Source of the DNA: Agromyces protaetiae
GTDB taxonomy: Bacteria; Actinomycetota; Actinomycetes; Actinomycetales; Microbacteriaceae
DNA length: 64,000 nt
Direction: 5' to 3'
NCBI RefSeq assembly: GCF_030866785.1
Contig: NZ_CP133018.1
Location: forward strand, 2,232,001-2,296,000
Shown here piece by piece: positions 38,521-57,820 of the stretch. Under the pieces are notes generated by a model that searched no databases, was not told where the DNA came from, and was given only the letters and a program-made list of their open reading frames with translations. Within the stretch, counting starts at the first letter, position 1; each line of letters begins with the position of its first letter. Both the position numbers and the translations under genes were made by a program.

Positions 38521-38533
38521 GCCGCGGCCGAGC

Positions 38534-40271: not shown

Positions 40272-40312
40272 GCAGACGGGTTCGAACGGAGTTCGCCGAA
40301 ACGCAACACAAT

Positions 40313-40338
40313 GGCCCGGCCTCCGAAGAGACCGGGCC
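40313..40338 (-). terminator. displaced tRNA-Asn terminator at the left island flank
   Basis: A 7-bp stem (ggcccgg / ccgggcc) with a 12-nt loop, followed on the minus strand by a T-rich stretch (attgtgttgcgttt). It lies directly beyond the left tRNA fragment. Before the island inserted it would have followed tRNA-Asn. Confidence 0.6.
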
Positions 40339-40342
40339 TGAA

Positions 40343-40385
40343 CTGCTCCCCCACTTGGACTCGAACCAAGAACCTATCGGTTAAC
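40343..40385. repeat. left attachment-site repeat (tRNA-Asn 3' fragment)
   Basis: 43 nt identical to 59266-59308. It comprises the discriminator, acceptor 3' strand, T arm and anticodon-arm 3' side of tRNA-Asn. The match stops abruptly at 40386, where the tRNA would continue. It is a crossover-site copy left by integration. Confidence 0.9.
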
Positions 40386-40467
40386 GACCTCGTACCGGGC
40401 TGGCGCAGGATCCGGCCGAGGTCCCGCGGAATCAGAGGCATCGCCGGAGGACTTACAGGCGCCGGCA

Positions 40468-40827
40468 TCACGGGATTTCACCGGGAATCATCTCATTCCG
40501 TGTCAATATTGCATCGTATTTTGCACTGGGCAGTTTCATGTTGCGCACGAAGCGAACGATGTCGAATCCTCGGAGTGTCGACCTGCGTAGATCGTCGCGG
40601 ATGTCGCGACGAGGATCGTGCCGAACACAGCCGCGTTGATAGAGGACGGCCCGCCATGCTCCGTCCACTCGTCCCGTTCGAGCCCGCGTGTCGGCGGGAT
40701 CGTCCATCGGCTTGACACCCAGACCCGCCGAAGCGTCGTCACGCTGCAGTTTCTCGAGGAACGTCTGCACCTTCGCCTTGGGTGTTGTCGAGTGTCGGCC
40801 GGGGCGTTCGAGCAGAAGCACGAGCAC
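40468..40827 (-). pseudogene. truncated frame after mcrC, possible helicase N-terminus remnant
   Basis: A 119-codon frame starting one base after the mcrC stop. FLEKLQRDDASAGLGVKPMD and TRTGRVDGAWRAVLY-like residues (RARTGRVDGAWRAVL) recall the RelE-like N-terminal segment found ahead of some UvrD-type helicases. After about residue 60 the likeness ends and the frame stops near the island end. I read it as the decayed stub of a sixth operon gene. A small RelE-like protein is the alternative. Confidence 0.4.
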
Positions 40828-40828
40828 T

Positions 40829-42091
40829 TCATGCCGGAGTCTGTTCGATGACGGGAGCAGACAGCAGATCGAGATCGATGCGACCCGACACAGAGCGATG
40901 CAGCACCGCGCTCGCGATCCGGTCGATCGCGGCTAACGATTCGCGGGGCGATACGGCGAGGTCGAGTGGCACCTCGGCGATCTCAACGCCCGAGTGGATG
41001 ACTCGGCGGGTGATCGCTTCCCCACCCTGCGCGTAGACGAGCAGCGCCTCGGTCACCTCTAGCGCGGTGCAGTACGCGAGCATCTGGTACTTGTCCGCGT
41101 TCGGATAACGACCGGACGCGTCGGCCGCCTTGTACTTCGCATCGAGCACCGTGCGGGGGATGCCTCGGTCGAGGTGGACGAGGTCGACCGCCATGGGTAC
41201 CCGCGAGCGGCCATCCGTGCGTTCGGTGTCGAGGTGTGCGCGGTACTGCGCTGCGAGCCGAGCGCCGCGACGCGCGAACGCCTCGCCGAGCGCCACGGTG
41301 ACGAAGTCTTCGAACACCTTCCACATCGAGACTGCGAACGCAGCGACCTTGATGCCGCCATTCCCGTTCTGCGCTGACGAATTGGCGAGAATGACCTCGG
41401 CCAACCGCAGCACGGGGTGGTAACGCTCGTTCAAGCGAGTTGCCCGCCACTCGGGTCGGCGTTGGTTCGGGCGCAGTACCGCCACCCCCGAGAGCCGGTT
41501 GTCGAGATGTGCGAGTCGCGCGCGAACACCTCGTGCAATGCCGGGCACGGCGCTCATCCGCCTGAGGGCGGTTCGCAGGATCTGGTTCTCGGCGATGTCG
41601 ACGAGGTAGTCGTCGTAGCTCACCTCGAGGGGCACGGCGCGCCCGGGGCGCGCGCGAAGCTGGTCGCCCACGCGGATTCGGCCGCGCACGACCATGGAGG
41701 ACTCATCGACCGTGCGGTACCCCTGCAGCACGCCGTGCATCAGCGCATGGTCGGCTAGGCGCGCGAGACTCTCCGCGAGCGCGGGCCACAGTTCGTCGTA
41801 CCGTTCCGCCTCGACAGTCTCGGGGCGGAATCCGGGATCTGCGGCGTACCCCAGCATGAACACGAGGTGTCCGAGCTTCACCCGCCGCTTCGGCCAAACC
41901 TCGACCTGAACGTCGCCAGCTCTTACCGCCCCAACGAGTCCGGCCGGACGAACCATCCAGCCCTGCTCGAGATCAGGGCGGAGGTCGAGGAACCCCGTTG
42001 CGCTGAGCGCCGCTGCCTCGGCTCGCGTGAACTCTGCTCGCACGCCGAAGGCCGCGGATTCGTCAAGCTGGATCCGACGGAGCTCGCTCAT
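40829..42091 (-). CDS. mcrC: McrC-family nuclease subunit
   Basis: 420 residues. The C-terminal half holds a PD-(D/E)XK nuclease site: MAVDLVHL near 297 (Asp) and TVLDAKYKAAD near 315 (Asp-x-Lys). The N-terminal half contains GAVRAGDVQVEVWPK, the McrC/DUF2357-like binding region. McrC stimulates McrB GTP hydrolysis and cuts DNA. It follows mcrB with a 4-nt overlap and is the last intact gene of the operon. Confidence 0.88.
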   Translation of the reverse strand: MSELRRIQLDESAAFGVRAEFTRAEAAALSATGFLDLRPDLEQGWMVRPAGLVGAVRAGDVQVEVWPKRRVKLGHLVFMLGYAADPGFRPETVEAERYDELWPALAESLARLADHALMHGVLQGYRTVDESSMVVRGRIRVGDQLRARPGRAVPLEVSYDDYLVDIAENQILRTALRRMSAVPGIARGVRARLAHLDNRLSGVAVLRPNQRRPEWRATRLNERYHPVLRLAEVILANSSAQNGNGGIKVAAFAVSMWKVFEDFVTVALGEAFARRGARLAAQYRAHLDTERTDGRSRVPMAVDLVHLDRGIPRTVLDAKYKAADASGRYPNADKYQMLAYCTALEVTEALLVYAQGGEAITRRVIHSGVEIAEVPLDLAVSPRESLAAIDRIASAVLHRSVSGRIDLDLLSAPVIEQTPA

Positions 42092-44412
42092 TCCGAATCG
42101 ATGCCCGTTTCAGACGGCCCGGTTGGACCCACTGACTGTACGGCTCGCCCTTCGTACTCCGCTGTCCCAGTATCGACCGCGAGGTCGACCGGTCCCAGCC
42201 TTCGCGAATCGACCGCGCGCAGCAGCGCGTCGAGCCCGAATTGCTCACGGATCACCTCGGGCGATCGCTGCCCGTAGTAGTGGTCCTCGAGCAGCGGCAG
42301 GATGTCGTACTTCCAGATCCGTTCGAGCCCAGCCTTCGTGCTCGCGCTCGTCCTCATTAGGAATGACGGCCCAATCTGCAGGTCCCGCTCGTCGATGCGC
42401 GAGTTGAGCTCGGCGAGCAACTGCGCCCGCAGCGTGTCGACATGGTTCGCCCGCAGGTACGACTCGAGCACGCTCTTCGTCGGCTCTACCGCCGGGTGCA
42501 ACTCGACGAACGGGAACCGCCTCCGGATCGCCGCGTCAACCAGCGAGATCGAGCGGTCAACGGTATTCATCGTGCCGATGATGAAGAGGTTCTTGGGCAG
42601 GCGGAATTCCTCGATGTCGCCGCTGTACTGCAACCGCACGGCTTCATTCCGGTACTCCAGTAGGTAGTACAGCTCGCCAAACACTTTCGCGAGATTGCCA
42701 CGGTTCATCTCATCGATGATCAACACGTAGGGCGCATCGGCGTTCTCGGCCAGCCGCGCCTCGTCGGCGATCTGGCGAAGCGGGCCGGGCTTTAGCTCGA
42801 AAGTGACGGTTCCCGACTCGGTCGATGGCCGAAGTCCCTCGAAAAAATCCTCATACGCGTATGACGGATGGAACTGTACGAGACGAACCCGGCTGCGGTC
42901 ACTGCCGACGACGTGCCGAGCGATCGCCTGCGCCACGTAGGTCTTGCCGGTGCCCGGAGGGCCGTAGAACACGAGCTGCTGCCGGTCTTGCAGCAGCTCG
43001 ATGATCTCCTGCAGGCTCGGGCGGGGCATGTGCAGCGATGCGGCTAGTTCGTCGGTCCCGGCCGGGAGCTCCGGCACCGTGGCAACGGGCGGAGGAAGTG
43101 GCGGCTCATCACCCGACAGGTCGTCATCGTCAATGCGACGTTCGGGCGCGAGGTACTGGTCGAGCACACCGAGCGCACTCGTCACGTCGACCACCGCTCC
43201 CTGGCCATCGAGCAGAGAAGGCAGGGGCTCGGGCAGATCCTTCAGGCCGGGTGCGCTCGCTGACCAGGCGGCTGGTCGACGCAGTCGAGACGAACCGCCC
43301 TCGACGAGTTCGGCGTCGCCGAGGACACTTCCCACGACCAACGCGTCGTCGAGGATACCGACGATGACGTCGTCGGCCGACATCTTGAGGATGAAGTCGG
43401 AGTACTCGCGCACCAGCGTCAGGCGCTGCGCGTACGTGAGATGGGCGTAGCCCGACTCCACAGCGGCGCGGATCGTCGGCTGTGCCGCGGTGGCGACATC
43501 CAGCTCGAGGTTCGTTGCGGGCAACGACACGAAACCGTCGTCGAGCCACGACTGCACGAGAGCCGCGCCGCCCTGTTTGGCCCGGACGAGCCACGCTCGC
43601 CGACCTGCGCTGGTCTTCACCTCCCACTGCGAACGGTAGGGCTCGCGGTACCAGTGCACTCGACTGCCAGCCGCGTCATCGACCTTCGTGCGGATCGCCT
43701 CGAGGTCTCGGTTGATCGCCTCCTCATCGTTTCCAGACGCTCCCCCGATCTCGTGCGCGAAGGCGTCGCGGATGAGCTTGCGATCCGCCGCCCGGACGAC
43801 GGCTTCGTATGAGCCCGGCCACGTCAGGTAGCAGATCGATGCCCGGATCGCCGGCGAATCCTTCGGCGTCGTCGCCACGAGCGCGCCGAACGCCCAGGGG
43901 TTGCCGAGCGCCGCGCGACGTTGGTCGTCGGTCGCATCGAACCAGGTTTCGACAAAACGGCACATCCACAGCAGCTGCGCCCAGACCTGCACCTTGAAGC
44001 CGACGCCACCGCGGAACACCCCCGGCAGTTCGACTGCCCGGCGCATCCAGTCCGGCGTGGCTGGGCGCGAAGGCGCCCACGAGAGCACGCGATCGACGCG
44101 CTCGATCTTGGTCGTCGGCTTGAAGTCGCTCAGCGGCAGTACATGGACGAACAGCAGTTCCGCGACGAAAACGAGTAGGTCGTCGGATTCGCTGCCGATC
44201 TGATCCGACAGCTTCTCGAAGAACGACCGGTCGCCGAGGTCGGCATTCTCGCCACCGACGAGAGCCGAAAGCCGGCGGGCGTTCTCGCGGGTCCACGTCG
44301 GGCGACCGAGGATCGGAGAGGGCTCGCCGCGGAGCCCCGCGCCCAGCACGCGCCACGCCGCATCTTCCAGCTCTGGGCTGGGTCCGCTCCCCCGGTCGAT
44401 TGCGTCGGTCAT
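42088..44412 (-). CDS. mcrB: McrB-family AAA+ GTPase with unusual N-terminal half
   Basis: 774 residues. The AAA+ module starts near residue 470: VFYGPPGTGKTYVAQAIARH, YVLIIDEMNRGNLAKVFGEL and the McrB signature MNTVDRSISLVDAAIRRRF. About 450 N-terminal residues precede it. They are acidic and helical, and I do not recognise an EVE, DUF3578 or other known reader domain in them. The N-terminus of McrB normally recognises modified DNA, so this part probably sets target choice. ATGA overlaps link it to the methylase gene upstream and mcrC downstream. Confidence 0.87.
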   Translation of the reverse strand: MTDAIDRGSGPSPELEDAAWRVLGAGLRGEPSPILGRPTWTRENARRLSALVGGENADLGDRSFFEKLSDQIGSESDDLLVFVAELLFVHVLPLSDFKPTTKIERVDRVLSWAPSRPATPDWMRRAVELPGVFRGGVGFKVQVWAQLLWMCRFVETWFDATDDQRRAALGNPWAFGALVATTPKDSPAIRASICYLTWPGSYEAVVRAADRKLIRDAFAHEIGGASGNDEEAINRDLEAIRTKVDDAAGSRVHWYREPYRSQWEVKTSAGRRAWLVRAKQGGAALVQSWLDDGFVSLPATNLELDVATAAQPTIRAAVESGYAHLTYAQRLTLVREYSDFILKMSADDVIVGILDDALVVGSVLGDAELVEGGSSRLRRPAAWSASAPGLKDLPEPLPSLLDGQGAVVDVTSALGVLDQYLAPERRIDDDDLSGDEPPLPPPVATVPELPAGTDELAASLHMPRPSLQEIIELLQDRQQLVFYGPPGTGKTYVAQAIARHVVGSDRSRVRLVQFHPSYAYEDFFEGLRPSTESGTVTFELKPGPLRQIADEARLAENADAPYVLIIDEMNRGNLAKVFGELYYLLEYRNEAVRLQYSGDIEEFRLPKNLFIIGTMNTVDRSISLVDAAIRRRFPFVELHPAVEPTKSVLESYLRANHVDTLRAQLLAELNSRIDERDLQIGPSFLMRTSASTKAGLERIWKYDILPLLEDHYYGQRSPEVIREQFGLDALLRAVDSRRLGPVDLAVDTGTAEYEGRAVQSVGPTGPSETGIDSE

Positions 44413-47400
44413 GCTGACTCCTTCTCCGGATGCCTCGGGCCGAAGCCGGGCGCGGGATCGAGGGACGATACGAATATGGTTCCCTCGTCGATGCAGCGCT
44501 GTATCGCGTCGTAGTTTTCAAGGACTAGGCGCTTGGTGCGGTACTCACCGAACTCGGCCTCATCGCTCCTTTTCACACTCCAGAAGCTGTCCATCATGTA
44601 CTCGAGTTCGTCCCGCGATGTGCCGTAAAGGTGGAAAAACGCGGCCTCGATCTCGGCCCGCATCAGTTCGCGGCGGCGCGTGTTCCAGACGAAAGGCGCA
44701 ACTCCATCGTCGAGCACTCGTCCCCAGTCGGCCATCGCCCACGACGTGTAGACGAGTTCGGCCAGTCGAGGACGCAGCCATTCGCCCATGCTTTGTCCCG
44801 CCCAATGAACCGTGGCTTGAAAGCTGTGAGGAGAGAGTACCGGGAGCTGATTTGCGATGAAGAAGTTGACGTGGCTGCCACCGACCTTGAGGCGAGCGAC
44901 AAAATCGAACACATACGAACTCAGCAGAGGCACCAGCATCCACCCATCGGGACCGGCCGTAACGATTGGAAGATTGTTTCCGACCGCGGACACAGGCCAC
45001 ATCGAACTCACAATCGTTCGCTCGTTCGTTGCATTTGTGGTGTCTCGGAACCCAAACCAGGGCCCGACCTGGCCAGCTTGCTTCTGAACCTCGCGCTCAG
45101 CTACCCAATAACGAGGCAATGACTCGAACTCCGGCGACGCCTTCTCGTCGTCTGTGACTCCACGGATATCCTCGCCATCCATGGTCGCCCATCGATGGTC
45201 GTAGTGGTGGACCATCTTTCCTTCGTATAGCGGGAGCATCCGCTCGTTGCCACGATGAAACACGTTGCCCACGAGAACCCAGCCGTCGGAAGCGAGATCA
45301 TCCCGGGTTCGGAAGAGCTCTGAATCGCTCGTCATATTGAAGAGACCCTGTATCAGAGAAACCCCCCAAGGATTGCCATGCTCCAAGTCATTCCTGTTTA
45401 TCCAGATTGGCGCGCGTCGGTAGATCGCAAGCGCAAGCTCTGCATCATGTCGAGTACGAAACACGGGCGCCGTGCCCGTATTCGGGTTCAGCAACAGAAT
45501 CTCCTCGGACGAGAGGGCGAATCGCGCAACCCCAATGCTTTGCGGGTTATTCAAGAAGAACGCGAACTGAGCGCGATCGATCGAGCGATCTCGCCCACCC
45601 ATCGCGAGGATGCAGAACTTTGTGCGCGAGTCGACCGCCCCGAAGAGCTTCTTCGTGTTGTCAAAGTCGTACAACGCAGCTAGCGAAGATGATCTGACGA
45701 TGTCTTTGAAGAAGTATTGAGTGTTATCGTCAGTCGCGATACCTGTCTGGACGATCACACCCGAACACCCAAAGGGCGTGGTCAATGTCCGGAAAAGTTC
45801 AGCAAAGACGGCGTACATGTTTACGCGTCCACGCCCAGTTAGCGGGTACCGACCGTTCGCAGTGAACTTGCGCAGACCGTCGATGCGTCGCTTTTCAGTT
45901 CGATACTCGCGATCGAGGATCGGATCGGTCTCGGCGAGCCTAGCAATAAGCGCCTTTCGCTTCGAACCAGTGGCGCGAGCGATCTCCTCATCGCGCGAGG
46001 CGAAGAACTCCTTCTCCCGTAACTCGATCTGTTCCCACGGCGGGTTGCCGAGCATGCATGAGAATCCGCCTGCCCAACCGTCCGGCCCGGCATCTTGCCC
46101 CTCCAGTTCGCCGAAGATTTCGGGGAACTCGAGGTGCCAGTGGAAGAACTGGTACTCCCTCGACAGCGCTTCCACATGAGCCGCCGTTACAGCGTGCTGC
46201 CTCGCACCCTCCGTCGTCGCCAGGTCGTCGACGACGGCGGTCGTCGGTGGCGGCGGGGCATCCATCACCAGCGGCCAGACGAACGCGGCAGCCCAGGCAT
46301 CCGCTCGCAGCTGGAGCACGCGCCGCTCGGGCGATGCCATCAAGGCATCCCATTCCGCTCCGCGCGAGCGGATGCTGGCGAGGTCGTCGGTGGGCGCGGT
46401 CAGTCGACCGCGTGCCGCCGCGTAGGTCTTCGCGAGTTCGGGGTCGCTGAAGCCGCCGAGCAGGCCTTGGCCCTTCAGCTCGATGCCGTTGCGCTTGCGA
46501 ACGCCGGCGGCGACCTTCTTGTCGTCGCCCTCGATCTCCTTGAACGCGTCGGTGGGCACGCCCGCCCTGAGCAGCGCCGGAGTCGTACCGAACAGGCTGT
46601 TGCCGATACGGATCCGGGCGTCGAGGAAGCCGAGGGGTTTCCCCGGCTCGAGCGCTTCGAGCCAGAGCGAGACCTTTGCGAGCTCCGCCGCGAGGTCGTT
46701 CATATCGACGCCGTAGATGCAGCGCGCGACGACGTCGTGCAGGGCGTGCTGCACTGTCTCGGAAGTCGGCTCGTCCTCGCCCGAGCGCACCTGCGCCAGC
46801 CGGCGCGCGATGCGCCGTGCCGCGGCGACCAGGAAGCCGCCCGACCCGCTCGCGGGGTCGCACACGGTGACGGACAGCAGGTTGCGTTCCTTCTCCTCCG
46901 CCGTCGTGCCCGACGTGACCGCGTCGTCGAGCACCGGGTCGAGTGCCGAGTCCAGCAGCGCGGAGACCAGCGCCGGAGGCGTGTAGTAGGAGCCGGTCGT
47001 CTTGCGCTCGTTACCCGAGAGGTGCTCGAGCCGGAATTCCTGAGTGTCGAGGTCGACCCTGGGCACCAGCTCGAGCAGGGACTCGTAGACCCCGCCGAGT
47101 TCCTCGGCACCGAGGTGGCGGTAGTCGATCGGTTGCGTGCGCTCGTTGCGGAGCTTGATCCACGCGAGATGCCGCATCGCGGTGAGGAGCGCTTGGTTCG
47201 TCAACTCCGCGCCAAGCAGCAGGTCGCGGTTCGGAGCATCCTCGATGTCGGGTGCGCGCCGGTCGGGGTCGAAGAGCCCGCCGAGTGCCGGAACGCCGAG
47301 CTGAGGCATCCCGTTGCCACCGAGTGCCGCGAGCACCATGCGCAGCGACCGCCACAGGTCGGGGTGCACGCCGCCCGAACGGAGCCGTGAGAGCTTTCGC

Positions 47401-48386
47401 AGCCTCACCGTCGAGAAGTACTGCTGGTAGCGCTCGCGCGCCTCGGCCGGCGCCGCCGGGTCGAGCAGTGCGCCGCGGTCCTCCGCGACGAACGCGAAGA
47501 GCAGCCGGTAGATGAGGCGCAGCAGCGCCTTGTGGTACTCGCGGTCGCTCAGGATGCCCCGGTGCAGCGCCGCACGGAGCCAGTCGTTCTTCGGGTTCGC
47601 GAGGAACCCGGTGCCCAGTGCCTTGATCGCTTCCTCAACGCCGCGACGAAGATCCTCCAGCGCACGTGTGCCGGCCTCAGCGGCCTCGGATCGCCATGCC
47701 TCGAGCCAGCAGTCGGCCGGGCCGGCCTCGGTGCCACCACGCTTCTCGACACGTGACTGGTGGCACAGCAGCCAGAGCATCTGGAACTCGGCGTACAGCT
47801 CGCCGTCGAAGATCGCCTCGAGGTCGAACTCGACGTAGGCGGAGCCTGCGAACGCGGTCGAGTCGCGCAGCAGCCGCAGCCGCACGCCGTTGCTCAGGAT
47901 GCCCCAGAGGTCGTCGTCGGTGCGGTTCAGGTACTCCTGCAGCATCGCCTGCGGCGCGCGTGCCGCGCCGGCGATGTTCGCGTTCCGCCGGTCGAGGTCG
48001 GCCCCCGGGCCGAGCAGGTGGATCGGCACGTGAGCCCAGCGGTGCGAGATCGGGTACTCGGTGCCCTCGATCGTGACGGCGGTCGCAGCAGGCAACCGCC
48101 CGTATCCGAGTTCGTTCAGCAGCACGAGCAGCCAACGGTCGCGCGCGCGGCCGGTGCCGGCCGCCGTCGCGTCGGTCGCCGCCGCTTCGCGCCATGCGCT
48201 CCATGCACCCCGCAGGTACGACCAGGCGCGAGCCGCGGCATCCCGAGGCTTCTCGTTGCCGACGAGGTGGTACGACGACGACGACAGGCTGGCAGGGTCA
48301 CTGAGTTCGTTCGCCTGTATGCGCTGCATGAGCGCAGCGGGCAGCACACCGCCGACCACCTTGATGGCCTGCAGTTCGCCGCTCAC
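44409..48386 (-). CDS. large N6-adenine DNA methyltransferase (type IIG/DrmMI-like)
   Basis: 1325 residues. SAM motif I is VCDPASGSGGFLVAAARR near 507; the catalytic NPPW is in MLGNPPWEQIELREKEF near 780. The N-terminal 450 residues have WGILSNGVRLRLLRD, like the nuclease-associated part of Eco57I-type enzymes, but no clear catalytic Asp-Glu-Lys set. Residues about 850-1170 are the likely target-recognition region, and their DNA is visibly less GC-rich than the rest. It probably marks host DNA for the system. PglX of BREX and DrmMI of DISARM are the nearest relatives I can name. The start is GTG, overlapping the SNF2 gene by 4 nt. Confidence 0.83.
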   Translation of the reverse strand: MSGELQAIKVVGGVLPAALMQRIQANELSDPASLSSSSYHLVGNEKPRDAAARAWSYLRGAWSAWREAAATDATAAGTGRARDRWLLVLLNELGYGRLPAATAVTIEGTEYPISHRWAHVPIHLLGPGADLDRRNANIAGAARAPQAMLQEYLNRTDDDLWGILSNGVRLRLLRDSTAFAGSAYVEFDLEAIFDGELYAEFQMLWLLCHQSRVEKRGGTEAGPADCWLEAWRSEAAEAGTRALEDLRRGVEEAIKALGTGFLANPKNDWLRAALHRGILSDREYHKALLRLIYRLLFAFVAEDRGALLDPAAPAEARERYQQYFSTVRLRKLSRLRSGGVHPDLWRSLRMVLAALGGNGMPQLGVPALGGLFDPDRRAPDIEDAPNRDLLLGAELTNQALLTAMRHLAWIKLRNERTQPIDYRHLGAEELGGVYESLLELVPRVDLDTQEFRLEHLSGNERKTTGSYYTPPALVSALLDSALDPVLDDAVTSGTTAEEKERNLLSVTVCDPASGSGGFLVAAARRIARRLAQVRSGEDEPTSETVQHALHDVVARCIYGVDMNDLAAELAKVSLWLEALEPGKPLGFLDARIRIGNSLFGTTPALLRAGVPTDAFKEIEGDDKKVAAGVRKRNGIELKGQGLLGGFSDPELAKTYAAARGRLTAPTDDLASIRSRGAEWDALMASPERRVLQLRADAWAAAFVWPLVMDAPPPPTTAVVDDLATTEGARQHAVTAAHVEALSREYQFFHWHLEFPEIFGELEGQDAGPDGWAGGFSCMLGNPPWEQIELREKEFFASRDEEIARATGSKRKALIARLAETDPILDREYRTEKRRIDGLRKFTANGRYPLTGRGRVNMYAVFAELFRTLTTPFGCSGVIVQTGIATDDNTQYFFKDIVRSSSLAALYDFDNTKKLFGAVDSRTKFCILAMGGRDRSIDRAQFAFFLNNPQSIGVARFALSSEEILLLNPNTGTAPVFRTRHDAELALAIYRRAPIWINRNDLEHGNPWGVSLIQGLFNMTSDSELFRTRDDLASDGWVLVGNVFHRGNERMLPLYEGKMVHHYDHRWATMDGEDIRGVTDDEKASPEFESLPRYWVAEREVQKQAGQVGPWFGFRDTTNATNERTIVSSMWPVSAVGNNLPIVTAGPDGWMLVPLLSSYVFDFVARLKVGGSHVNFFIANQLPVLSPHSFQATVHWAGQSMGEWLRPRLAELVYTSWAMADWGRVLDDGVAPFVWNTRRRELMRAEIEAAFFHLYGTSRDELEYMMDSFWSVKRSDEAEFGEYRTKRLVLENYDAIQRCIDEGTIFVSSLDPAPGFGPRHPEKESA

Positions 48387-51238
48387 GCGGACACCTCCGG
48401 ACGGTACATGTAGACCCCGAGGATGTCGGGAGGAGTCTGGGCGCGCACGGCGAGACCACGAACGACGAGGTCGCCGGCACGGTCACCGCGCGCGGCCCGG
48501 CGCACGGCCGCGTGGTCGTCGCGGAGCTGGCCGGCGACGCTCGATGCCTGCTCGGACAGGAGCCGCTGCAGAGCCGGGATCGCCCCGGTGACCACGGAGA
48601 GTGTGTTGCGAGCGAGGTCTGGCGGGGTATTCTGCGTCGGCACACTGAGCAGCAGCCGGTCGATCTCGGTGGGATCGAGCCACGACGGGTCGCTGGGGCG
48701 TCCGGTGAACGCGACAATCCGGGCCTCCTCCGCGAGGCTGGTGCGCTCGCCGCCGCGCGTCGGAAGCACGAGGTGCGTTCGGAACCGCACGAGCAGCGCG
48801 ACGGTCATGGTGTCGACGGCGTCGGTGGTGATCATGCCGGCTCGCCTCGCCGGGCGCTCCCGCTCGGGAAGCTGCGCGTCGAGGGCCGAGTTGAGCACGT
48901 ACTCGGCGAGCGCATTGACCGTCGGGTCCGTTCGGTGCAGCACCGCCGAACCCTTCGGCGCCGGAAGATCCGGCGCGAAGGAGGTGATCACTCGACCGCT
49001 CGCGCTTCTCAACGCATCGCTCAGCGCGACGGGAGCCATGGCGAAATCCACGTTGAACCCGCCACCCGGAGTGTCGGAGACGAGCACGTCGAGGCCGAGC
49101 ATCGCATCGCGCACGAACTCCGCGACGTCGCCGGGCTCGCCGAGGCTCCGCCGTGCGTCGCCGAGCGCTTGCATCACCTCAGCCGGGCGGATGCTGGCCT
49201 GCGCGAACCGGCTTCGGCTCGCCTTCTCGCGCTCGGCGCTTGACTCCCACTCGGCGTCGAAGCTCGTGATCGCGGGTTCATTCAGCCCCAAGTCGAACTC
49301 GAGCTGCTCATTGCCCTTGCCGCGGAGCAACGCCCCCTCCACCAGCGCGCTCAGCACCTGGTCGCTCTGCGCGGGCACCGGCACACTGATGCCGAGATCG
49401 CGCCTGATGCGCTCATGCTTGCGCAGCAGCACGTCGAGCACGATGCCGTCGATTCCGTTGTCACTGCCGTAGATCGTCTGGGCGCGCACGATGTCGCGAG
49501 GCTGGCCGAACCGGTCGACGCGACCCTCGCGCTGTTCGTGCCGGGTCGGGTTCCATGCCAGGTCGTAGTGGACGACAGCCTGGAAGTCGTCTTGCAGGTT
49601 CACGCCCTCCGAGAGGCAGTCGGTGGCCACGAGGATGCGATTGTCGCCCTCGGTGCGCTCGGCGAGCGCGGCGATGCGCGCTGCCCGCTCCTCCGACGGA
49701 AGCTCGCCGGTGACGACCTCGACCTCCACGCGCTTGAACGCACCGGCGAGGTACTCGCGTACGTATTTCGCGGTCTGGATAAATCGGCAGAAGACGATCG
49801 GGCTGTAGCCGTCGCGCAGCAGTGCCTTCACCTGGCGCTCGAGCAGGGCGAGCTTCGCGTCATCCGATGGATTCGCGACGAGCGCGTTGGCACGCTCGGC
49901 CAAATCACGGAGCATCCGCGACTCGCTCTCATCGTGATCTGCGCCGGGGGCGACGTCGGCGGCGTCGGCACTCTCGTCCTCGTACTGGTCGAGGACCTCG
50001 GCGGCGCCGACCTCGTCGGCCTCGCGCTCGGTCGCCGCCTCTGTGCTCGCCGCCCGCGTGCGAAGCGTCATCGCCGCAGCTGCCGGCGAAGACGCCATGG
50101 CGCGGAGCAGCGCGAGGGCGGACCACCACCGCACGCGCTGTTGCAGCTTCGTGCCGGAGGTGTCCTGCACCTGTCCGCGCACGTAGGCCAGCACCTCCTC
50201 GAAGAGGTCGGCGTGGCTGCCAGAGAGCTTATAGGCGACTTCGCTTGTCTGTCGGTCGGACGGAAACTTCGTGTCCTCGTCGAGGTAGCTGCGGATGTCG
50301 GCGCGACGACGCTGCACCATGTGAGAGGCCAGCCGACGACGACCTTGATCCGATGCGAGGTCGGTCGTCTTCAGCTCGGGGTCGAGCAGTCCGATGAGGT
50401 TGCGGAACGCGCCATCGTTGCCGGAGTGCGGTGTGGCGGTCGTGAGCACCAGGTGCCGATCGGGATCGTCGGCGAGCGCACGCACGAGCTCGTACCGCTG
50501 GGTGCGACCGCCGGAGCCTCTGCCCGAGTCGTCGACCGCGACGCTGTGGGCCTCGTCGACGATGACGAGGTCGGGCGCGCTGTTCTGGAACTCATACCGG
50601 CGCCGGCTCACCTTGATGAAGTCGAGCGAGACCACCGTGACGGGGTATCGCTCGAAGACCGACTCATTCATGGTGAGCCCGCGCTCCAGTGAAGTGATGG
50701 TGCTCGGCAACACCAGCTGGGCGTCGAGGCCGAACTTCTCGCTGAGCTCGCGGCGCCACTGCTCCGCGAGGCTCGGTGGGCACAGCACCGCCAGGCGCTT
50801 CGCGCTGCCCTGTTCGAGCAGCTCACTGGCGATGAGGCCGGCCTCGACGGTCTTGCCGATGCCGACGTCGTCGGCGATCAGGAGCCGCACGGTCTCCTGG
50901 CGAAGGGCGAGGAGCAGCGGGACGAGCTGGTAGGGCCTCGGGTCGACGTTGAGCCGTGCAAGCGAACGGAACGGGCCACCGGTCGACCGGAAGCCGATGC
51001 GGAGGGCTTCGCGGAGCATCCGTGCCGAGCGGGCGTCGCCACGGTCGTCGGGCGACGGCGCGTCGAAGGTCGCCGCGGTCACCGCTTCGACCGCGGGCAG
51101 GAGCCCTGCGACCTCGGCATCGGAGCCACCGAGCGGCTTCGCGACCACGAAGTCGGCGTCGGAGCCCGGAAGGACCACCCAGTCACGCCCCCTAGCGTTG
51201 ACGAGCGAACCGATGGCGAATGCGGTCGTCGTGGTCAC
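48383..51238 (-). CDS. SNF2-family helicase/ATPase, DrmD-like
   Basis: 951 residues. Helicase motif I is LLIADDVGIGKTVEAGLIAS near 126, DEAH in LVIVDEAHSVAVDD near 228, motif III LTTATPHSG, and the C-lobe EQREGRVDRFGQPRDIVRAQ near 575. An acidic insert lies between the lobes (about 390-450). Length and the closing PPDILGVYMYRP fit DrmD of class 1 DISARM and related DpdE-type proteins. It probably translocates on DNA. GTG start, with 4-nt overlaps on both sides. Confidence 0.85.
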   Translation of the reverse strand: MTTTTAFAIGSLVNARGRDWVVLPGSDADFVVAKPLGGSDAEVAGLLPAVEAVTAATFDAPSPDDRGDARSARMLREALRIGFRSTGGPFRSLARLNVDPRPYQLVPLLLALRQETVRLLIADDVGIGKTVEAGLIASELLEQGSAKRLAVLCPPSLAEQWRRELSEKFGLDAQLVLPSTITSLERGLTMNESVFERYPVTVVSLDFIKVSRRRYEFQNSAPDLVIVDEAHSVAVDDSGRGSGGRTQRYELVRALADDPDRHLVLTTATPHSGNDGAFRNLIGLLDPELKTTDLASDQGRRRLASHMVQRRRADIRSYLDEDTKFPSDRQTSEVAYKLSGSHADLFEEVLAYVRGQVQDTSGTKLQQRVRWWSALALLRAMASSPAAAAMTLRTRAASTEAATEREADEVGAAEVLDQYEDESADAADVAPGADHDESESRMLRDLAERANALVANPSDDAKLALLERQVKALLRDGYSPIVFCRFIQTAKYVREYLAGAFKRVEVEVVTGELPSEERAARIAALAERTEGDNRILVATDCLSEGVNLQDDFQAVVHYDLAWNPTRHEQREGRVDRFGQPRDIVRAQTIYGSDNGIDGIVLDVLLRKHERIRRDLGISVPVPAQSDQVLSALVEGALLRGKGNEQLEFDLGLNEPAITSFDAEWESSAEREKASRSRFAQASIRPAEVMQALGDARRSLGEPGDVAEFVRDAMLGLDVLVSDTPGGGFNVDFAMAPVALSDALRSASGRVITSFAPDLPAPKGSAVLHRTDPTVNALAEYVLNSALDAQLPERERPARRAGMITTDAVDTMTVALLVRFRTHLVLPTRGGERTSLAEEARIVAFTGRPSDPSWLDPTEIDRLLLSVPTQNTPPDLARNTLSVVTGAIPALQRLLSEQASSVAGQLRDDHAAVRRAARGDRAGDLVVRGLAVRAQTPPDILGVYMYRPEVSA

Positions 51239-54200
51239 GCGGCACCCTTTCCGAATACGGAGGCGTTCGCCTCGATCACATGCTCGAGATCGTCGTTGGC
51301 ACCGATGGAGACGACATTCCAGCCGTCCCAGCTGAGTTCGGTGACATCGGCTTGGCCGTGCCCCTCGAAGACGACGACGGCGCGCGGGTTGTCGTAGGCG
51401 AAGTCGACGATGAAGCCGCCCACCTCGTCACCGAGACGCTCGGGCAGATGGAAGCCGCGCTCGCGGAGGATCGACAGCATCGCGCGGGCGCGGTCGCCGA
51501 GGAGATCCTCGTCGGTGAGCGGCTGGGATTTCGGTGCTGGACCTGTCGAGGATGCCGCGCCGGTGCCCGAGGTGGTGGGAACCTGAGGCGCGGGGGGAAT
51601 GTGTGCCAGCGGCTTCGGAGTCGTGCCTGCGCGGGCGAGCCGAAGGAACAGCGGCACGATCTCGCGACGGTCGATCTGCTCGTGCCGGTTCTGGTTCGAG
51701 TACGAGAGCAGACAGCGGTAGCAACCGCGCACGCACGAGTCGGGCGTCTCCGCGCCGGTCTCCGGATCGACGTGCATGATCCGAAGCGCCTCGCGCGCGA
51801 CCTGCGCGATCGCGTCGGCGTCAGCCTGCAGCCGACGGAGAGCCCCGGCGCCACCCTCGGCCGCCTCGGTGAGAAGCAACCGCCCGCGTTCCTCACCGTC
51901 GGGAAGGAGTTCGCTCGCAAGCTCGGAATCCTCGAGCTGGAACCGCGCTTCGATACCACGCTCGAGTGCGTACTGGGCGGTGATCGCCTGCGTCTCAGAG
52001 AGGGACTCTGTCCAGCGGAGCACGACGATGTTGCGGCGGTCCTCGACGTACGGGGTGACCATCGCCTTGGTCTTCACATCCTCAGGCCGAGGGGTCTCGT
52101 CCTCGTCCTCGTCGGTCTCCGTGTCGATCTCCGAGGCCTCACGTTCGCTCAGCCACTTGCCCCGGACGGTATCGAGCCAGAAGCCGTACTGGTCGGGATT
52201 GCGCCGCTTGCGTCGGCCGAGATTGGTGATCCGGATCTCAGCCGCGTCGCCGTAGGAGACGTCGAGGATGGGGTCGCCCGAGGCATCCGCCACGGTCGAT
52301 TCGGCCTTGCCCGGGTGACCGGCGCGTGGGACGAACCGGTAGGTCGTGCGGAGTTCGTAGCCGATGCGGTTGCGCTCCTCCTCATCGGCGCTGATCCGCT
52401 CGCGGCGACGCGTGATTACGGTCTGCAGCTGCAGGAGTCGCGTCCACGCGGGCGGCAAGGTCGCGCCGCACGACTCGCAGACATCGAACGCCTTCGCGTC
52501 GAGGTGATGCGTGCCGCAGTTGCCGCACACCTTCGCGTCAGACAGGGTCACGTCGGTGGCCGATTCGCCGCCCTCGCGCGGAAGGCTGATCCGCGTGACC
52601 TGGTACCGAGCACCTTCGTGGTAGATCAGCGAGTTCGGGCCGAACTCACTGATGGCGAGGAAGCGCGGACGCTGGAGCCAGCTGCTGTCGCGGCCCCCGA
52701 GCCCCGGAATAAATGCCGCAAGCGGCAGGCGTGGGAAGGAATAGCCCGGGAGGAACCCCTCCGAAGCGAGGTACCGGTAGGTGTAGAAGTCGGACTGGTT
52801 GAAGCCCTGCCCGCCGGCATCGTTGAGCAGCAGGTCGATGCGCTGGCGGGCCTCGCGCATCCGCCGCTCGGCTTCCTCACGCTGCTTGCGGCCGGCCGAG
52901 ACGTTCGATACCTGGCCGTACGCCACGTCGCGCTCGGCGACCGCCGACGCGTACAGCTGCCGCCACCGGTCGCACGCGCGGTCGAATGCCGTCGGGGCTC
53001 CATCGATGACACCGTCGATCCAGCCGTCGAACCACCAGCTCGAGGCATCCAGCGTTGATTGCAATGGTGCGAGCACGCGAGTGGCCGCCGCGCGAGCCCG
53101 ATTCGAGACATCCGGCGCGCCCAGGTAGGCGGCCAGGGTCTCCTTCACCGGCAGCTCACCGCCACCCTGCACATCGAGCACGTCACTCAGGGATGACCCG
53201 AGCCCGTGCCGCGTCGGGGCGAGCGCCTCCGCGAGCCAGACGGCGTGGACATGGGCGCGGACGAGATCCTCGTTCGCCAGGTCGAGTCGCGGGGGCAGCA
53301 CCTGACCGGCCACCATGAGATCCGAGCGCTCGAAGTAGTACGCGTCATGAGCGTTCCCGGAGGCGCAGTAGGTGACCACCAACGCCGGCTGCCCCGAGCG
53401 CCCAGCGCGTCCGCTGCGCTGCGCATAGTTCGCCGGCGTCGGCGGTACGTTCCGCATCGCGACCGTGTTCAGGGCCGCGATGTCGACACCGAGTTCCATC
53501 GTCGGCGAGCAGAACAGCAGCGGGAGGGCCGCGGACATGAACGCTTGCTCGCGATCGATCCGGATATCGGCGGGCACCTGAGCCGTGTGCTCGGCGGCCC
53601 GGATGCCGGCCAGCTCGGTGGCGTGCTCGCGATAGAGGTCGCGGAAGTACTCGACCACCCGTGGACGCTGCTCGTTGTCGAAATGGCGGCGCACCGGGTC
53701 GGATGCACCAGTTGTGCCGTCGCCCGCCTTGAGCGCGATCGCAGCCGAGTTGATGCGGTAGCCGCTGGTGTGCTCCTCCACGACGCGCTTCACGACGCCG
53801 GCGCGCTCGAGTACTTCGAGCAGCGAGGCGATCACGTCGGTGGCGTCGTTCGTGGTGAGCTTCAGCCCGAAGCGTTCCGGCTGAGCCACCCACTTGCCGT
53901 AGGCGCCCCGACCGGTGAGCGTGAGGATGGAGCGCGCTCCGCCCTGCTTTCCCGGCTCGGGGCGGGCGACCCCGACCAGCGGCGGCGGCTCGAGCTCGCC
54001 GAGAGCCCAGAGGCCGGCAAGCCGGGCCCGACTGTCACGCTGGAGCCGTTCGAACGCATCGCGCCCGAGTGCCTCCGAGTCGATCGCGAGCACCCGACGG
54101 AACTCGTCGAGCAGCACCGTCGCGGCTTCGAGGCGCTGCCCTGGCGCAGCATCGCGGAGTACCGAGTGCGCGTCCTGCCACCGATCCTCGAGGTCGACGA

Positions 54201-56448
54201 GCTCCTCGACGTCGGGGTAGACGACAGCCATGAGGCCGGACTGCTCAAGATTCGGCAGTGTGACCCGCCAGCCGCGCTGGAGGTCCGCGATCGCACGGAA
54301 CTCCAGCACGTTGCGGAGCGCGCGCTCACCTGCCCTGCGCCCGAGACCGTCCGGTGCCAGCAAGAAATCGAAGGGCTCGAGCGCCAGAGCGTCGAAGACG
54401 GCTTGGCCGATGTCGAGCAGCTCGATGCCGTCCGGTTCGGCCCGAAGCGCACGGTAGAGCGCTCCGCGGAGCTGGACCACCTGGACGAAATCGTTGAGAT
54501 GGCCGGCCTGCAGCGAGGCATCCTGACGGTTGTCGACGAAGGTGAGGAGCTTCCTCGCCTCAGCCGGTAGCTCATCCGCCGGGAACTCCTTGAGGGAGGC
54601 GATCAGCGAGGTCGCGAGCACCGTCATGGCGCTCGAACGGCCCTCACGGTCGAGGGTGACGAGCTTGGTGTACTCGCTCGTGCGCGGCGCCTCGTACGAC
54701 ACGGCGCACTTGAGGCAGAACCGGAAGATGCCGGGAACCCATGCCGCGAGCGTCTCGCCTTCGGGAACCTCGTTGTCACCGAGGATGGTCACTGCCCCGT
54801 TCGGATGGACCGACACGCGTTCGGGACCGCGGTCGGCCATCGTCCGCGTGACTGTGACGCCTGCTGCCCCCTGAGTCAGCCAGGAGGCAGGGAGGCGCCC
54901 GTCGGAGATCGGATTCGCCGGCCACGGCAGGTCGTCGGAGATGTACAGGTACCCGTCGCCCTGTTCAGCGACCCTCAGCTGATGTCGGGCGAGCGCGATG
55001 CCGTTCTCGCGGTGGACCATGAGGTAGTCCTGCCCACACTCGCGACAGAACGCGAGCGGGTAGAGGCGGCGCTCACTCTCGCCCGGCAGCACGAGCTGGA
55101 ACACCGTCTCGATCGCCCGCGTCGACACCGGTTCGGCGGTCGCGTAGACGCTTCCGCCCTTCGAAAGGAACTGGTGCAGGCGGAAGGCGAAGAAGGAGCG
55201 GCCCGAGCCGGTCTTGACCCGCGACCCTGCGAGGAGCGTCGCGCGGATGGCGTTGCCGCAGCGCTCTCGGTCGACGCCGGTCTGTTCGCTCAGGTCACGG
55301 CTCGCCGCCTCGACGGTCTGAGGGCGCCGCCGGACCAAAGGTCCATCTGGGCTCTCGCGCACGACGCCGAACTCGCTCTCGACCCAAGCGGCAAGCGGAT
55401 CGGTCGCGAGCTCTTCGACCGTGGGGTTCCAGGCCGGTGCTTCGATCTCGCCGCGTGCGCGGACCACGGATGCGAGGGGTGAGGCGTCCCTGGCGCCTTC
55501 CTCGGTGGCCGCTTCGTCGGTCGCCCGGACGAGCGTCTCGGTGATGACGGAGCGCGGAAGTACCTCTGTACCGAAGATGCGCGACGCGACCTCGGCGACG
55601 TCACGTCGCTGCTGGTCGAGTGTTCCACCGCTGGACATCGTTGCCGACGTGCCGATGCATTGCAGCGTGTCATCCGCCTGACACGCTTCGCGCACTCGCC
55701 GGACAAGCATGCTGACGTCCGCGCCCTGCCGGCCGCGATAGGTGTGCAGCTCGTCCAGCACGAGGAACTCGAGACCTTCGGCGGCCTTGATGAGCGATGC
55801 TCGCTCGTCGGGTCGAGTCAGTAGGAGTTCGAGCATCACGTAGTTCGTGAGCAGGATGTCGGGCGGATTGCGGAGGATCTCCTCACGGTCCTCGGTTGAC
55901 TCCTGACCGGTGTATCGCCGGAAGGTGACCGGCGCCCGGCCGTCGAACCCGAAGTGCAAGAACTTCTTCAGTTCCTCGAGCTGGCTGTTCGCGAGAGCGT
56001 TCATCGGGTAGACGACGATGGCCCTGATGCCTTGGCCAGATCCACTCCGAAGCACGCGATCGACGATCGGCACGATGTAGGCGAGCGACTTCCCGGACCC
56101 TGTGCCCGTCGTCAGGACGTAGCTGGCGCCGGTCTTCGCGACTTCGATCGCGTCGCGCTGGTGGCGATGGAAGACCAGCGCGCGGTTCCCGCGATCGTGC
56201 TCGCTGCTCTTCACTCGGAAAACCTCGCGGCAGGTTTCATGGAGCAGACCATCGTCGGCAAGCTCGTCGACCGAGCCGCCGGAGGCGAACGACGGGTTTA
56301 GCGAGAGCCAGGGGTCAGGCCACTGAGCGCCGCGCGCGCTCTCGGCTACGAGGGTCTCGCGCAGGCGCCTCTCCTGCACCTCCACGAAACCCTCGGTAAA
56401 CCGACGGTAGTCGTGAATGAGGTCTCGGTGAATGGAAAACGCGTCCAC
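51235..56448 (-). CDS. 1737-residue DEAD/DEAH helicase with DUF1998 and nuclease-like tail
   Basis: First gene of the defence operon. Motif I is YVLTTGTGSGKSLAYIVPIV near 112, motif II FLVLDELHTYRGRQGAD near 235, motif VI YAQRSGRAGRSGQPALVV near 1011. A zinc knuckle CGNCGTHH/CESCG is near 1303-1325, and the DUF1998 cysteine motif CVRGCYRCLLSYSNQNRHEQ is near 1570. The last 60 residues (GGFIVDFAYDNPRAVVVFEG, then GWNVVSIGAND) resemble a Vsr/DUF559-type fold. Large helicase-DUF1998 proteins include DruE (Druantia), MrfA and DrmA plus DrmB of DISARM. The GTG start at 56448 has no clear ribosome site. Confidence 0.82.
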   Translation of the reverse strand: MDAFSIHRDLIHDYRRFTEGFVEVQERRLRETLVAESARGAQWPDPWLSLNPSFASGGSVDELADDGLLHETCREVFRVKSSEHDRGNRALVFHRHQRDAIEVAKTGASYVLTTGTGSGKSLAYIVPIVDRVLRSGSGQGIRAIVVYPMNALANSQLEELKKFLHFGFDGRAPVTFRRYTGQESTEDREEILRNPPDILLTNYVMLELLLTRPDERASLIKAAEGLEFLVLDELHTYRGRQGADVSMLVRRVREACQADDTLQCIGTSATMSSGGTLDQQRRDVAEVASRIFGTEVLPRSVITETLVRATDEAATEEGARDASPLASVVRARGEIEAPAWNPTVEELATDPLAAWVESEFGVVRESPDGPLVRRRPQTVEAASRDLSEQTGVDRERCGNAIRATLLAGSRVKTGSGRSFFAFRLHQFLSKGGSVYATAEPVSTRAIETVFQLVLPGESERRLYPLAFCRECGQDYLMVHRENGIALARHQLRVAEQGDGYLYISDDLPWPANPISDGRLPASWLTQGAAGVTVTRTMADRGPERVSVHPNGAVTILGDNEVPEGETLAAWVPGIFRFCLKCAVSYEAPRTSEYTKLVTLDREGRSSAMTVLATSLIASLKEFPADELPAEARKLLTFVDNRQDASLQAGHLNDFVQVVQLRGALYRALRAEPDGIELLDIGQAVFDALALEPFDFLLAPDGLGRRAGERALRNVLEFRAIADLQRGWRVTLPNLEQSGLMAVVYPDVEELVDLEDRWQDAHSVLRDAAPGQRLEAATVLLDEFRRVLAIDSEALGRDAFERLQRDSRARLAGLWALGELEPPPLVGVARPEPGKQGGARSILTLTGRGAYGKWVAQPERFGLKLTTNDATDVIASLLEVLERAGVVKRVVEEHTSGYRINSAAIALKAGDGTTGASDPVRRHFDNEQRPRVVEYFRDLYREHATELAGIRAAEHTAQVPADIRIDREQAFMSAALPLLFCSPTMELGVDIAALNTVAMRNVPPTPANYAQRSGRAGRSGQPALVVTYCASGNAHDAYYFERSDLMVAGQVLPPRLDLANEDLVRAHVHAVWLAEALAPTRHGLGSSLSDVLDVQGGGELPVKETLAAYLGAPDVSNRARAAATRVLAPLQSTLDASSWWFDGWIDGVIDGAPTAFDRACDRWRQLYASAVAERDVAYGQVSNVSAGRKQREEAERRMREARQRIDLLLNDAGGQGFNQSDFYTYRYLASEGFLPGYSFPRLPLAAFIPGLGGRDSSWLQRPRFLAISEFGPNSLIYHEGARYQVTRISLPREGGESATDVTLSDAKVCGNCGTHHLDAKAFDVCESCGATLPPAWTRLLQLQTVITRRRERISADEEERNRIGYELRTTYRFVPRAGHPGKAESTVADASGDPILDVSYGDAAEIRITNLGRRKRRNPDQYGFWLDTVRGKWLSEREASEIDTETDEDEDETPRPEDVKTKAMVTPYVEDRRNIVVLRWTESLSETQAITAQYALERGIEARFQLEDSELASELLPDGEERGRLLLTEAAEGGAGALRRLQADADAIAQVAREALRIMHVDPETGAETPDSCVRGCYRCLLSYSNQNRHEQIDRREIVPLFLRLARAGTTPKPLAHIPPAPQVPTTSGTGAASSTGPAPKSQPLTDEDLLGDRARAMLSILRERGFHLPERLGDEVGGFIVDFAYDNPRAVVVFEGHGQADVTELSWDGWNVVSIGANDDLEHVIEANASVFGKGAA

Positions 56449-57820
56449 TCAGCACACCACTTCGTCTTGCAACAAGAACTGATCCTCCGGCCGGCGCCGG
56501 AACGAATACAGGGGCGGCGCTACGTTGCCGACTCTATCGAGTACGCCTCCGCAGGTGGGGGCGAACCGCGGTGACGTGCCTCGAAGTGGGGTCGGTGAAT
56601 CAGAGCGCCGCGATCCTACCCGAACGACGGACACAACGTGTCAAGTCTGGTTCGGTCACTTCGGAACGGTATCGTCGGCCGCTCGCCCCGCCGCCTCACC
56701 AGTTGATGTGCCATCCGGTGCTGGCGTGCGCCGTCGGCTCGCCCGACATGTAACCCCGCCATCATTGATACTGAATAGGACAGCCATCGCCCGCCGAGCA
56801 TGTGAGGTCCGATGCAGCACCGTCCACGTTCGGTGCGCTTCCGCTCGACTGGTCAGTGTCTACGACGCGACTCCATTCTCTGAGGCGGATGCGTATCTTC
56901 AGCATCACGGCAGGCCCGCGTTCGAGCGCAGCTAAACTCCGACGGCCGCCGCCGCGCTGCGAACGGCCGCGTGCGGAGTTTAATGTGGCGCCGCCCATAA
57001 GGCTCGGATCGTCCTCAAAGTACCCCTGCGCGGCGCAACCCGTTTGGTGCGGCACCACTACATCCACTCACCGTCGTACAATCGCACTTCGACCGCCCGC
57101 GTCCCTAGAACGAACCGAGCTGTCAGCGGCCGCAGCTCAGTCACCACTCAGCGCGATCCTGCGGGGACGAATTCGCGTGACCACCCGCCGATATTCTGCG
57201 TCGTCACAACCGTCGAACCGACCTTCATCAAGACCTCCTCCTTTCCGCGCTCGCCCTGAGCCGCGGCAGTCCGTTCATGCGCGGCTGACCTGCGATGCAG
57301 AAGAAGTGCGATATACGCCGAACCACCAACGACCTGCTTGCCACGGTTCCGGGAGACGCGGCCGGCGTTGGTGCGTCCTCGCGGGACGCACCGCCACCGC
57401 GGTCGGTGCGGACGAAATCCGGTGATTTGATGGTCGGGTGGAGCACATCGCCCCCGGCGCCGGATGTCACCGAAGCTGTCCACCACCGATGCACACAAAG
57501 GCTGCAACAAGTGCGAGAAGTCTTGCAGTCAGCTCGCACGCTGGTGGCAGATGAGCCGAGGCGTTGGGGCCGAGCGCGCTTTTCGTCTGGTTCTCTGAGC
57601 TGGCGAAACTTGCTGCACTTGTCACACTTGACGGGGTGGGGGCGGGACTTCCCCGAAGTTCCAGGGATCCTGCCTGTTGTAAGTACTCTCCGATTTCTCA
57701 CCGGCTTGTCGCAAGTTGGACCAATGGTCGCCCTCGAGGGGTTTGTCAGGGCGGGCGGAGGCCCTCAGGCGGAGCGGAAGGGGGCCAGCCCGCATCAGCG
57801 GATGCGTATCCTGGCAGAAG
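56449..57820. other. 1.37-kb stretch without a recognised gene, between operon and integrase
   Basis: Both neighbouring genes are transcribed away from this stretch, so it must hold both promoters. Several frames of 60-200 codons exist on either strand, but all are Arg/Ser/Pro-rich and lack ribosome sites and family likeness. A 61-codon frame (56634-56449, minus) ends directly before the helicase GTG. ACTTG-type repeats lie near the integrase end (57606-57630). It may also hold a small RNA or decayed cargo. Confidence 0.5.
57606..57630. repeat. three tandem 9-bp ACTTG units upstream of the integrase
   Basis: Units AAACTTGCT, GCACTTGTC and ACACTTGAC in register. GCACTTGT also occurs inverted at 57508-57515 (acaagtgc). 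The position before a tyrosine integrase gene fits arm-type binding sites or an operator. Confidence 0.4.

What the first reader, a model, noticed from the sequence alone, without database searches (positions are those of the whole stretch)
40829..56448. Five-gene translationally coupled defence operon that fits no standard system
Helicase-DUF1998, DrmD-like SNF2, large adenine methylase, McrB and McrC follow one another with 4-nt overlaps at 51235-51238, 48383-48386, 44409-44412 and 42088-42091. They are therefore one transcription and translation unit. DISARM has drmD and drmMI but also separate drmA, drmB and drmC. Druantia has DruE but no SNF2/methylase pair of this kind. BREX would need pglZ and brxC, absent here. 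McrBC normally cuts modified DNA, so pairing it with a methylase in one operon is paradoxical unless McrB reads another mark or the absence of one. The set may be a composite modification-and-restriction system.
Basis: partly seen in the sequence, partly recalled or inferred. Interest (0 to 1): 0.88.

Follow-up and report, generated by a model that had tools for sequence, protein, structure and literature searches.

The report
Mobile ARMADA defence operon with McrBC
A soil-type bacterium carries a recently inserted mobile island holding a known, recently named anti-phage system (ARMADA) joined in one operon to a second restriction enzyme (McrBC); the helicase's own cutting domain looks worn out, so the second enzyme may have taken over the cutting.

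Summary
In detail: five intact genes on one strand, each neighbouring pair overlapping by 4 nt. The claim that the set fits no system is wrong. YprA helicase, RapA/SNF2 helicase and PglX-like methylase, in this order, match the published description of ARMADA Type I (Bell et al. 2025 preprint), and the same group had already noted a frequent link of such a cassette to McrBC.

Additions: (1) The operon is cargo of an ~19-kb element with an integrase, flanked by 41-bp repeats of tRNA-Asn; its SNF2 is absent from 36 of 36 congeners searched, and 5 of 5 inspected have an empty site. (2) McrBC diverges in step with the trio (YprA-McrC r 0.92, 22 loci) but is not universal. (3) A RelE-UvrD gene like ArmD of ARMADA Type II follows mcrC in many relatives; the window keeps a decayed scrap. 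(4) The helicase's Vsr-like nuclease lacks its motif in the window's whole clade; such loss occurs almost only with McrBC present (34 of 37, versus 14 of 29 intact; only suggestive after tree correction). The methylase is adenine-type and the host has no C5-cytosine methylase match, so no paradox remains.

The parts
51235..56448 (-). YprA-family helicase (ARMADA Type I, ArmC-like), 1737 aa: DEAD, helicase C, DUF1998/MZB, C-terminal Vsr-like domain
51247..51531 (-). Vsr-like nuclease fold at the C-terminus of the helicase (residues about 1640-1734), motif E..D..DGxxH lost
48383..51238 (-). RapA/BrxHII-like SNF2 helicase (ArmA-like), 951 aa
   Evidence: PADLOC model PDLC02853 full length 936 bits (labelled DpdE), DrmD 324 bits below its cut-off of 610
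44409..48386 (-). PglX/Eco57I-like adenine-type DNA methylase (ArmB-like), 1325 aa
   Evidence: Pfam Eco57I; NPPW in 75 of 75 aligned rows
42088..44412 (-). McrB, NxxD-type GTPase, 774 aa
43093..44412 (-). N-terminal half of McrB (residues 1-440), presumed target reader: helical 1-250, mixed about 265-385; no confident match
   Evidence: model; replaced in part of the relatives; sequence searches of residues 259-425 empty
40829..42091 (-). McrC nuclease subunit, 420 aa; D303, D317, K319 invariant among 9 aligned rows
   Evidence: PF10117 189 bits; alignment
40642..40785 (-). Scrap of a RelE-like domain as in ArmD, directly behind mcrC (inside ORF 40468-40827); no UvrD part follows
   Evidence: E 5.3e-5, best of 1054 six-frame segments, next E 2
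57716..59374 (+). Tyrosine recombinase (integrase) of the element; ORF limits as called, start uncertain
   Evidence: PF00589, 27.3 bits against a cut-off of 27.1
40345..40385 (.). Left attachment repeat (41 bp identical to 59268-59308)
59268..59308 (.). Right attachment repeat, 3' part of tRNA-Asn (59268-59341, minus strand)

Best explanation
The five genes are an ARMADA Type I anti-phage system (YprA helicase, RapA-like SNF2, PglX-like adenine methylase) built as one operon with a McrBC Type IV restriction pair, carried by a small integrative element in tRNA-Asn. Most likely it gives two layers of defence. The methylase marks host DNA with N6-methyladenine and the two helicases act on incoming DNA that lacks the mark (inferred, by analogy with BREX and DISARM). 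McrB recognises phage DNA carrying some other modification, probably on cytosine, and McrC cuts it (family knowledge). Shown here: gene content, order, intact motifs of the five enzymes apart from the helicase's nuclease domain, joint descent, mobility. Inferred: the mark, the target, and that it defends at all.
For: Trio and order as published for ARMADA Type I. YprA upstream of SNF2 in 79 of 80 relatives and a methylase match downstream in 79 of 80. McrB within 500 bp of the methylase in 21 of 63 readable loci, McrC downstream in 31 of 50 loci extended into their genomes. Joint divergence of McrC and YprA, r 0.92 over 22 loci. Same five genes in Nocardioides plasmid pNOCA01. Integrase, attachment repeats, 0 of 36 congeners, 5 of 5 empty sites. 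No C5-cytosine methylase match in the host. Precedent of BREX plus a Type IV enzyme (PMC8565348, abstract).
Against: In an even draw of the phylum only 1 of 12 other genomes with the SNF2 has a linked McrC. No phage or methylome data. Reader domain of McrB unidentified, so a cytosine target is a guess. YprA of ARMADA II (E. coli) and of Druantia III score alike against the window by BLAST, so type assignment rests on order, partners and domain make-up, not on a tree with the published reference.
Confidence: 0.65

Rival explanations
1. One composite machine rather than two layers: the trio detects DNA lacking the host mark, and McrC, not the helicase's worn-out Vsr domain, supplies the cut.
For: Vsr motif lost in 8 of 8 rows of the window's clade, where McrBC is adjacent in all 7 that can be read. 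Over all rows with known state, McrBC present in 34 of 37 motif-less and 14 of 29 motif-bearing rows (Fisher p 1.6e-4); with 25 kb readable 34 of 35 and 14 of 23 (p 5.7e-4). Joint divergence.
Against: After tree correction the support is weak: median sign-test p 0.125 and 0.031 by the two ways of pairing, 0.25 and 0.125 under the 25-kb rule; no association with direct adjacency, p 0.29. The pattern was sought after it was seen. Many McrBC-bearing systems keep the motif.
Confidence: 0.3
2. McrBC only travels with the trio as an independent module in a defence island; the operon adds co-expression and nothing else.
For: Other modules fill the place behind the methylase: a Gabija-like pair in L012, RelE-UvrD plus GmrSD in L041. 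In Streptomyces-type loci McrC lies several to 25 kb away. Only 1 of 12 in the even draw.
Against: Four 4-nt overlaps, also three in the Nocardioides plasmid; divergence in step.
Confidence: 0.25
3. The island is decaying and not functional: armD is a scrap and the helicase nuclease has lost its motif.
Against: Five long ORFs intact with intact ATPase, methylase and McrC motifs; the motif loss is shared by a whole clade with conserved genes, so it is not a fresh lesion; clade mates read here also lack an ArmD behind McrC.
Confidence: 0.1
4. It is a DISARM, Druantia, Dpd or BREX subtype.
For: Single-protein matches to DrmD, DrmMI, DruE and DpdE models.
Against: Fused DUF1998, so no split DrmA/DrmB; no DruH, DpdA, PglZ or BrxC match among the five proteins (for the three with more than 25 PADLOC families only the best 25 were shown) or in the Pfam scan of ten neighbouring ORFs. 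NCBIfam cut-offs for DrmD and DpdE not reached.
Confidence: 0.03

Closest known systems
ARMADA Type I (Bell et al. 2025 preprint, PMC12458937)
   Same: YprA first, then RapA-like helicase, then PglX-like methylase; fused DUF1998; Vsr-like C-terminal fold
   Different: McrBC joined into the operon (association known from the same group); Vsr motif lost although the preprint predicts an active domain; armD scrap behind mcrC
ARMADA Type II (E. coli, L087)
   Same: Homologous helicases and methylase; ArmD type RelE-UvrD gene related to the scrap
   Different: Other gene order, ArmD intact, no McrBC in the E. coli locus read
McrBC linked to a DISARM-like cassette (Bell et al. 2024, PMC11090510)
   Same: Described association of canonical NxxD McrBC with YprA, SWI2/SNF2 and PglX-like genes (passages only)
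   Different: No mention in the passages read of a lost helicase nuclease, ArmD or the mobile element
BREX plus BrxU island (Picton et al. 2021, PMC8565348)
   Same: Methylation-based system and a Type IV enzyme in one island, complementary layers (abstract)
   Different: BREX and a GmrSD-family enzyme instead of ARMADA and McrBC

Membership tests
ARMADA Type I | YprA-like helicase, then RapA/BrxHII-like helicase, then PglX-like methylase | tested here: met
   order as stated in the preprint
ARMADA Type I | YprA with fused DUF1998, CxxC zinc modules in the RecA2 region, helical extension before the OB-CON-DUF1998 part | tested here: met
ARMADA Type I | BrxA-like helical insert after RecA1 | not tested
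   that part was not modelled
ARMADA Type I | C-terminal Vsr-type domain, predicted active | tested here: inconclusive
ARMADA Type I | Place in the Type I clade of the YprA tree | tested here: inconclusive
   published reference sequences could not be fetched; the tree holds relatives only; ArmC (Type II) and DruE score alike
ARMADA Type II | Order RapA-like, methylase, YprA, then intact RelE-UvrD ArmD | tested here: not met
   YprA comes first; only an ArmD scrap; no other full ArmD in the genome
DISARM | Separate DrmA and DrmB genes | tested here: not met
   DUF1998 fused to the helicase; DrmD cut-off not reached
Druantia | DruE with DruH or the Type I/II partner genes | tested here: not met
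   only DruE-like partial matches of the helicase; no partner match among the rows shown for the five proteins
Dpd | DpdA and 7-deazaguanine genes | tested here: not met
   none among the five proteins or ten neighbouring ORFs; genome not searched
BREX | PglZ and BrxC | tested here: not met
   no match among the five proteins or ten neighbouring ORFs
McrBC (Type IV restriction) | McrB GTPase with NxxD motif and McrC with intact PD-(D/E)xK residues, adjacent | tested here: met
McrBC (Type IV restriction) | Cleavage of modified DNA | not testable with these tools
   reader region without confident match

The most novel reading that the evidence does not exclude
ARMADA-McrBC-ArmD is one composite system of actinomycetes in which the cutting step has moved from the helicase's Vsr domain to McrC: adenine marking separates self from non-self, and McrBC serves both as effector against unmarked DNA and as a trap for modified phage DNA. 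The window is a slimmed form that has lost armD.
Probability: 0.25. Interest if true: 0.75.

Novelty: new variant of a known kind. Interest (0 to 1): 0.5.

Why it matters
How ARMADA destroys phage DNA is not known. A clade in which the helicase's own nuclease has lost its motif while McrBC always stands in the operon makes the question testable: mutate McrC and see whether the trio still protects. The case also shows how a methylase-based and a modification-dependent system can share an operon without self-attack, and that ArmD, described in the preprint's main text as a Type II part, also accompanies Type I with McrBC.

Tried and rejected
Considered and rejected: DISARM, Druantia, Dpd and BREX membership (see membership rows); the PADLOC label DpdE for the SNF2, a full-length match without any Dpd partner; ORF 40217-40471 as a gene (it crosses the attachment site and has no Pfam match).

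Led nowhere: sequence searches for the McrB reader region; the whole-model fold search of McrB, in which only the AAA domain was effectively compared. The order of strands and helices at 265-385 reminds me of EVE/PUA-type readers, but that is recall and unconfirmed. IMG/VR gave one relative, L104, which I did not examine. Association of nuclease loss with directly adjacent McrB was tested and is absent (p 0.29).

Limits. Tree rows with over half gaps were dropped (75 kept); loci cut by contig ends were left out of the McrC counts. In the counts six rows count as McrBC-bearing on McrB alone. L038, L039 and L048 are the three motif-less rows counted as lacking McrC; for L038 and L039 only 7-8 kb were readable, and the genome of L048 has McrC on another contig. 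Contig identity rests on strand, coordinates and contig length; it was verified by overlapping sequence for L042 and L063 only. The ArmD of L038 is probably on another contig (an McrC beside it would overlap the methylase), so 31 of 50 for ArmD may be 30. The scan of 36 congeners used E 1e-150 for the SNF2. Supplements of PMC12458937 could not be read (no look-ups allowed), so ArmD in Type I or dead Vsr domains may be listed there; I found neither in the main-text parts I read nor through the searches. PMC13192584 and PMC13316683 were seen as search listings only; PMC12904381 and PMC7641849 as passages.
Full report
Observation. Five ORFs on the minus strand are open at the stated coordinates and overlap by GTGA or ATGA. 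Families: YprA-type helicase with MZB/DUF1998, SNF2, Eco57I/PglX-like methylase, McrB-type GTPase, McrC. Motifs are intact: TGTGSGKS and DELH in the helicase, GIGKT and DEAH in the SNF2, DPASGSG and NPPW in the methylase, GPPGTGKT, DEMNR and MNTVD in McrB, DAK in McrC.

What it is called. The 2025 preprint PMC12458937 (outline and abstract, parts 1-3 of 8, passages and legends seen; [quoted passage not shown] Its introduction, and the 2024 paper PMC11090510 (passages), report that such a cassette is frequently or prevalently associated with McrBC. The finding is therefore not an unknown system. The libraries at hand do not name it: in PADLOC 2023 the best match of the SNF2 is DpdE and of the helicase DruE.

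Element. A 51-bp repeat (94%; 41 bp identical) lies at 40335-40385 and 59258-59308, the latter overlapping tRNA-Asn. Between them lie the operon and a tyrosine recombinase. Third-position GC of the operon genes is 0.79-0.86, while many flanking genes reach 0.90-0.95. The SNF2 (E 1e-150) is absent from 36 of 36 congeners. In 5 of 5 congeners opened, genes of both flanks lie within 14 kb around one tRNA-Asn with a single copy of the repeat; the AzlC gene stands within about 0.5 kb of it in 4, and was not found in L098. The stretch 38521-40334, with a choloylglycine-hydrolase-like gene found in 2 of 41 genus genomes counting its own, has no counterpart between AzlC and tRNA-Asn in those four, so it may be an older insertion.

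Relatives. The scan of named genomes kept the best 80 loci. YprA lies upstream of the SNF2 on the same strand in 79 and a methylase match downstream in 79; the two misses are contig ends. Of 63 with enough sequence, McrB follows the methylase within 500 bp in 21, farther away in 6, and was not seen in 36. Extending 50 loci into their genomes: McrC on the same strand downstream in 31 (farthest 25.0 kb), an ArmD-like gene in 31 (one doubtful, L038), both in 20, neither in 8. McrC is followed by ArmD within 300 nt in 20 of the 49 genomes searched, 25 of which have both (this count does not require linkage to the trio), and also in L023, L032, L055 and L059. Against this, an even draw of 198 genomes of the phylum found the SNF2 in 13, and of the 12 others only 1 (G133) has a linked McrC, 20 kb away and with ArmD behind it. 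Linked McrBC thus marks part of the actinomycete lineage, not ARMADA I as a whole. Outside it, D. radiodurans pMP1 has trio and McrBC about 2 kb apart with a transposase gene between.

Joint descent. Among 22 loci bearing all five genes (window included) pairwise distances correlate: YprA-SNF2 0.96, YprA-MTase 0.78, YprA-McrC 0.92, YprA-McrB AAA 0.89, each with permutation p 0.0005. I did not correct for host relatedness; but three Actinokineospora strains fall in two groups that differ alike for all five genes. McrB residues 1-260 align poorly in part of the set while 260-440 and the AAA domain hold; the McrB of Actinoplanes regularis (L008) carries an Mrr N-terminal domain instead.

armD scrap. 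An ArmD N-terminal profile ranks the segment just behind mcrC first among 1054 six-frame segments of the window (E 5.3e-5, next 2). It covers 48 residues of the RelE-like part; no UvrD part follows before the attachment site. The genome has no other full ArmD, only one partial match at E 6e-24.

Mechanism. The methylase is adenine-type by its NPPW motif (family knowledge); McrBC enzymes known to me act mainly on modified cytosine, though an archaeal McrB with a YTH-like reader binds m6A in DNA (PMC7641849, passage), so an adenine target is not excluded. The host genome has no C5-cytosine methylase match, while 10 of 14 control genomes do. Methylase and McrBC can therefore live together. BREX plus BrxU (PMC8565348, abstract) is a tested precedent of two complementary layers. 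I rate two layers in one operon most likely, and transfer of the cutting step to McrC as the bolder reading.

Verdict. Real and mostly known, with three additions that I did not find in the texts seen: the mobile element, ArmD behind Type I McrBC with a scrap here, and the worn-out helicase nuclease in a McrBC-bearing clade.

Noticed in passing
window 58666-58705: Eight perfect copies of GGGCT inside the integrase ORF; a change in copy number would shift its frame, so the integrase might be phase-variable.
   Followed up: no
window 38521-40334: A choloylglycine-hydrolase-like gene beside the left attachment repeat, in 2 of 41 genus genomes counting its own; no counterpart between AzlC and tRNA-Asn in four congeners.
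   Followed up: partly
L082 13001-30773: D. radiodurans R1 plasmid pMP1 carries the trio and McrBC, with an IS630-like transposase gene right behind the split methylase genes.
   Followed up: partly
L083 2685-28982: Conjugative plasmid pNOCA01 of Nocardioides sp. JS614 has annotated DISARM drmA/drmB about 4.5 kb upstream of a complete trio plus McrBC operon.
   Followed up: partly
L101 10388-11626: A second, different McrC (PF10117) beside an SMC-like ATPase lies between methylase and McrB-McrC-ArmD in a Streptomyces island (L063).
   Followed up: no
L012 16876-20387; L041 16975-21358: Other modules behind the methylase: OLD-type ATPase plus UvrD helicase (Gabija-like by my recall), and RelE-UvrD plus a GmrSD N-terminal domain protein.
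   Followed up: partly
PADLOC model PDLC02853: The model labelled DpdE matches the ARMADA SNF2 over its full length (936 bits), so annotation with PADLOC 2.0 may mislabel ARMADA loci as Dpd.
   Followed up: no
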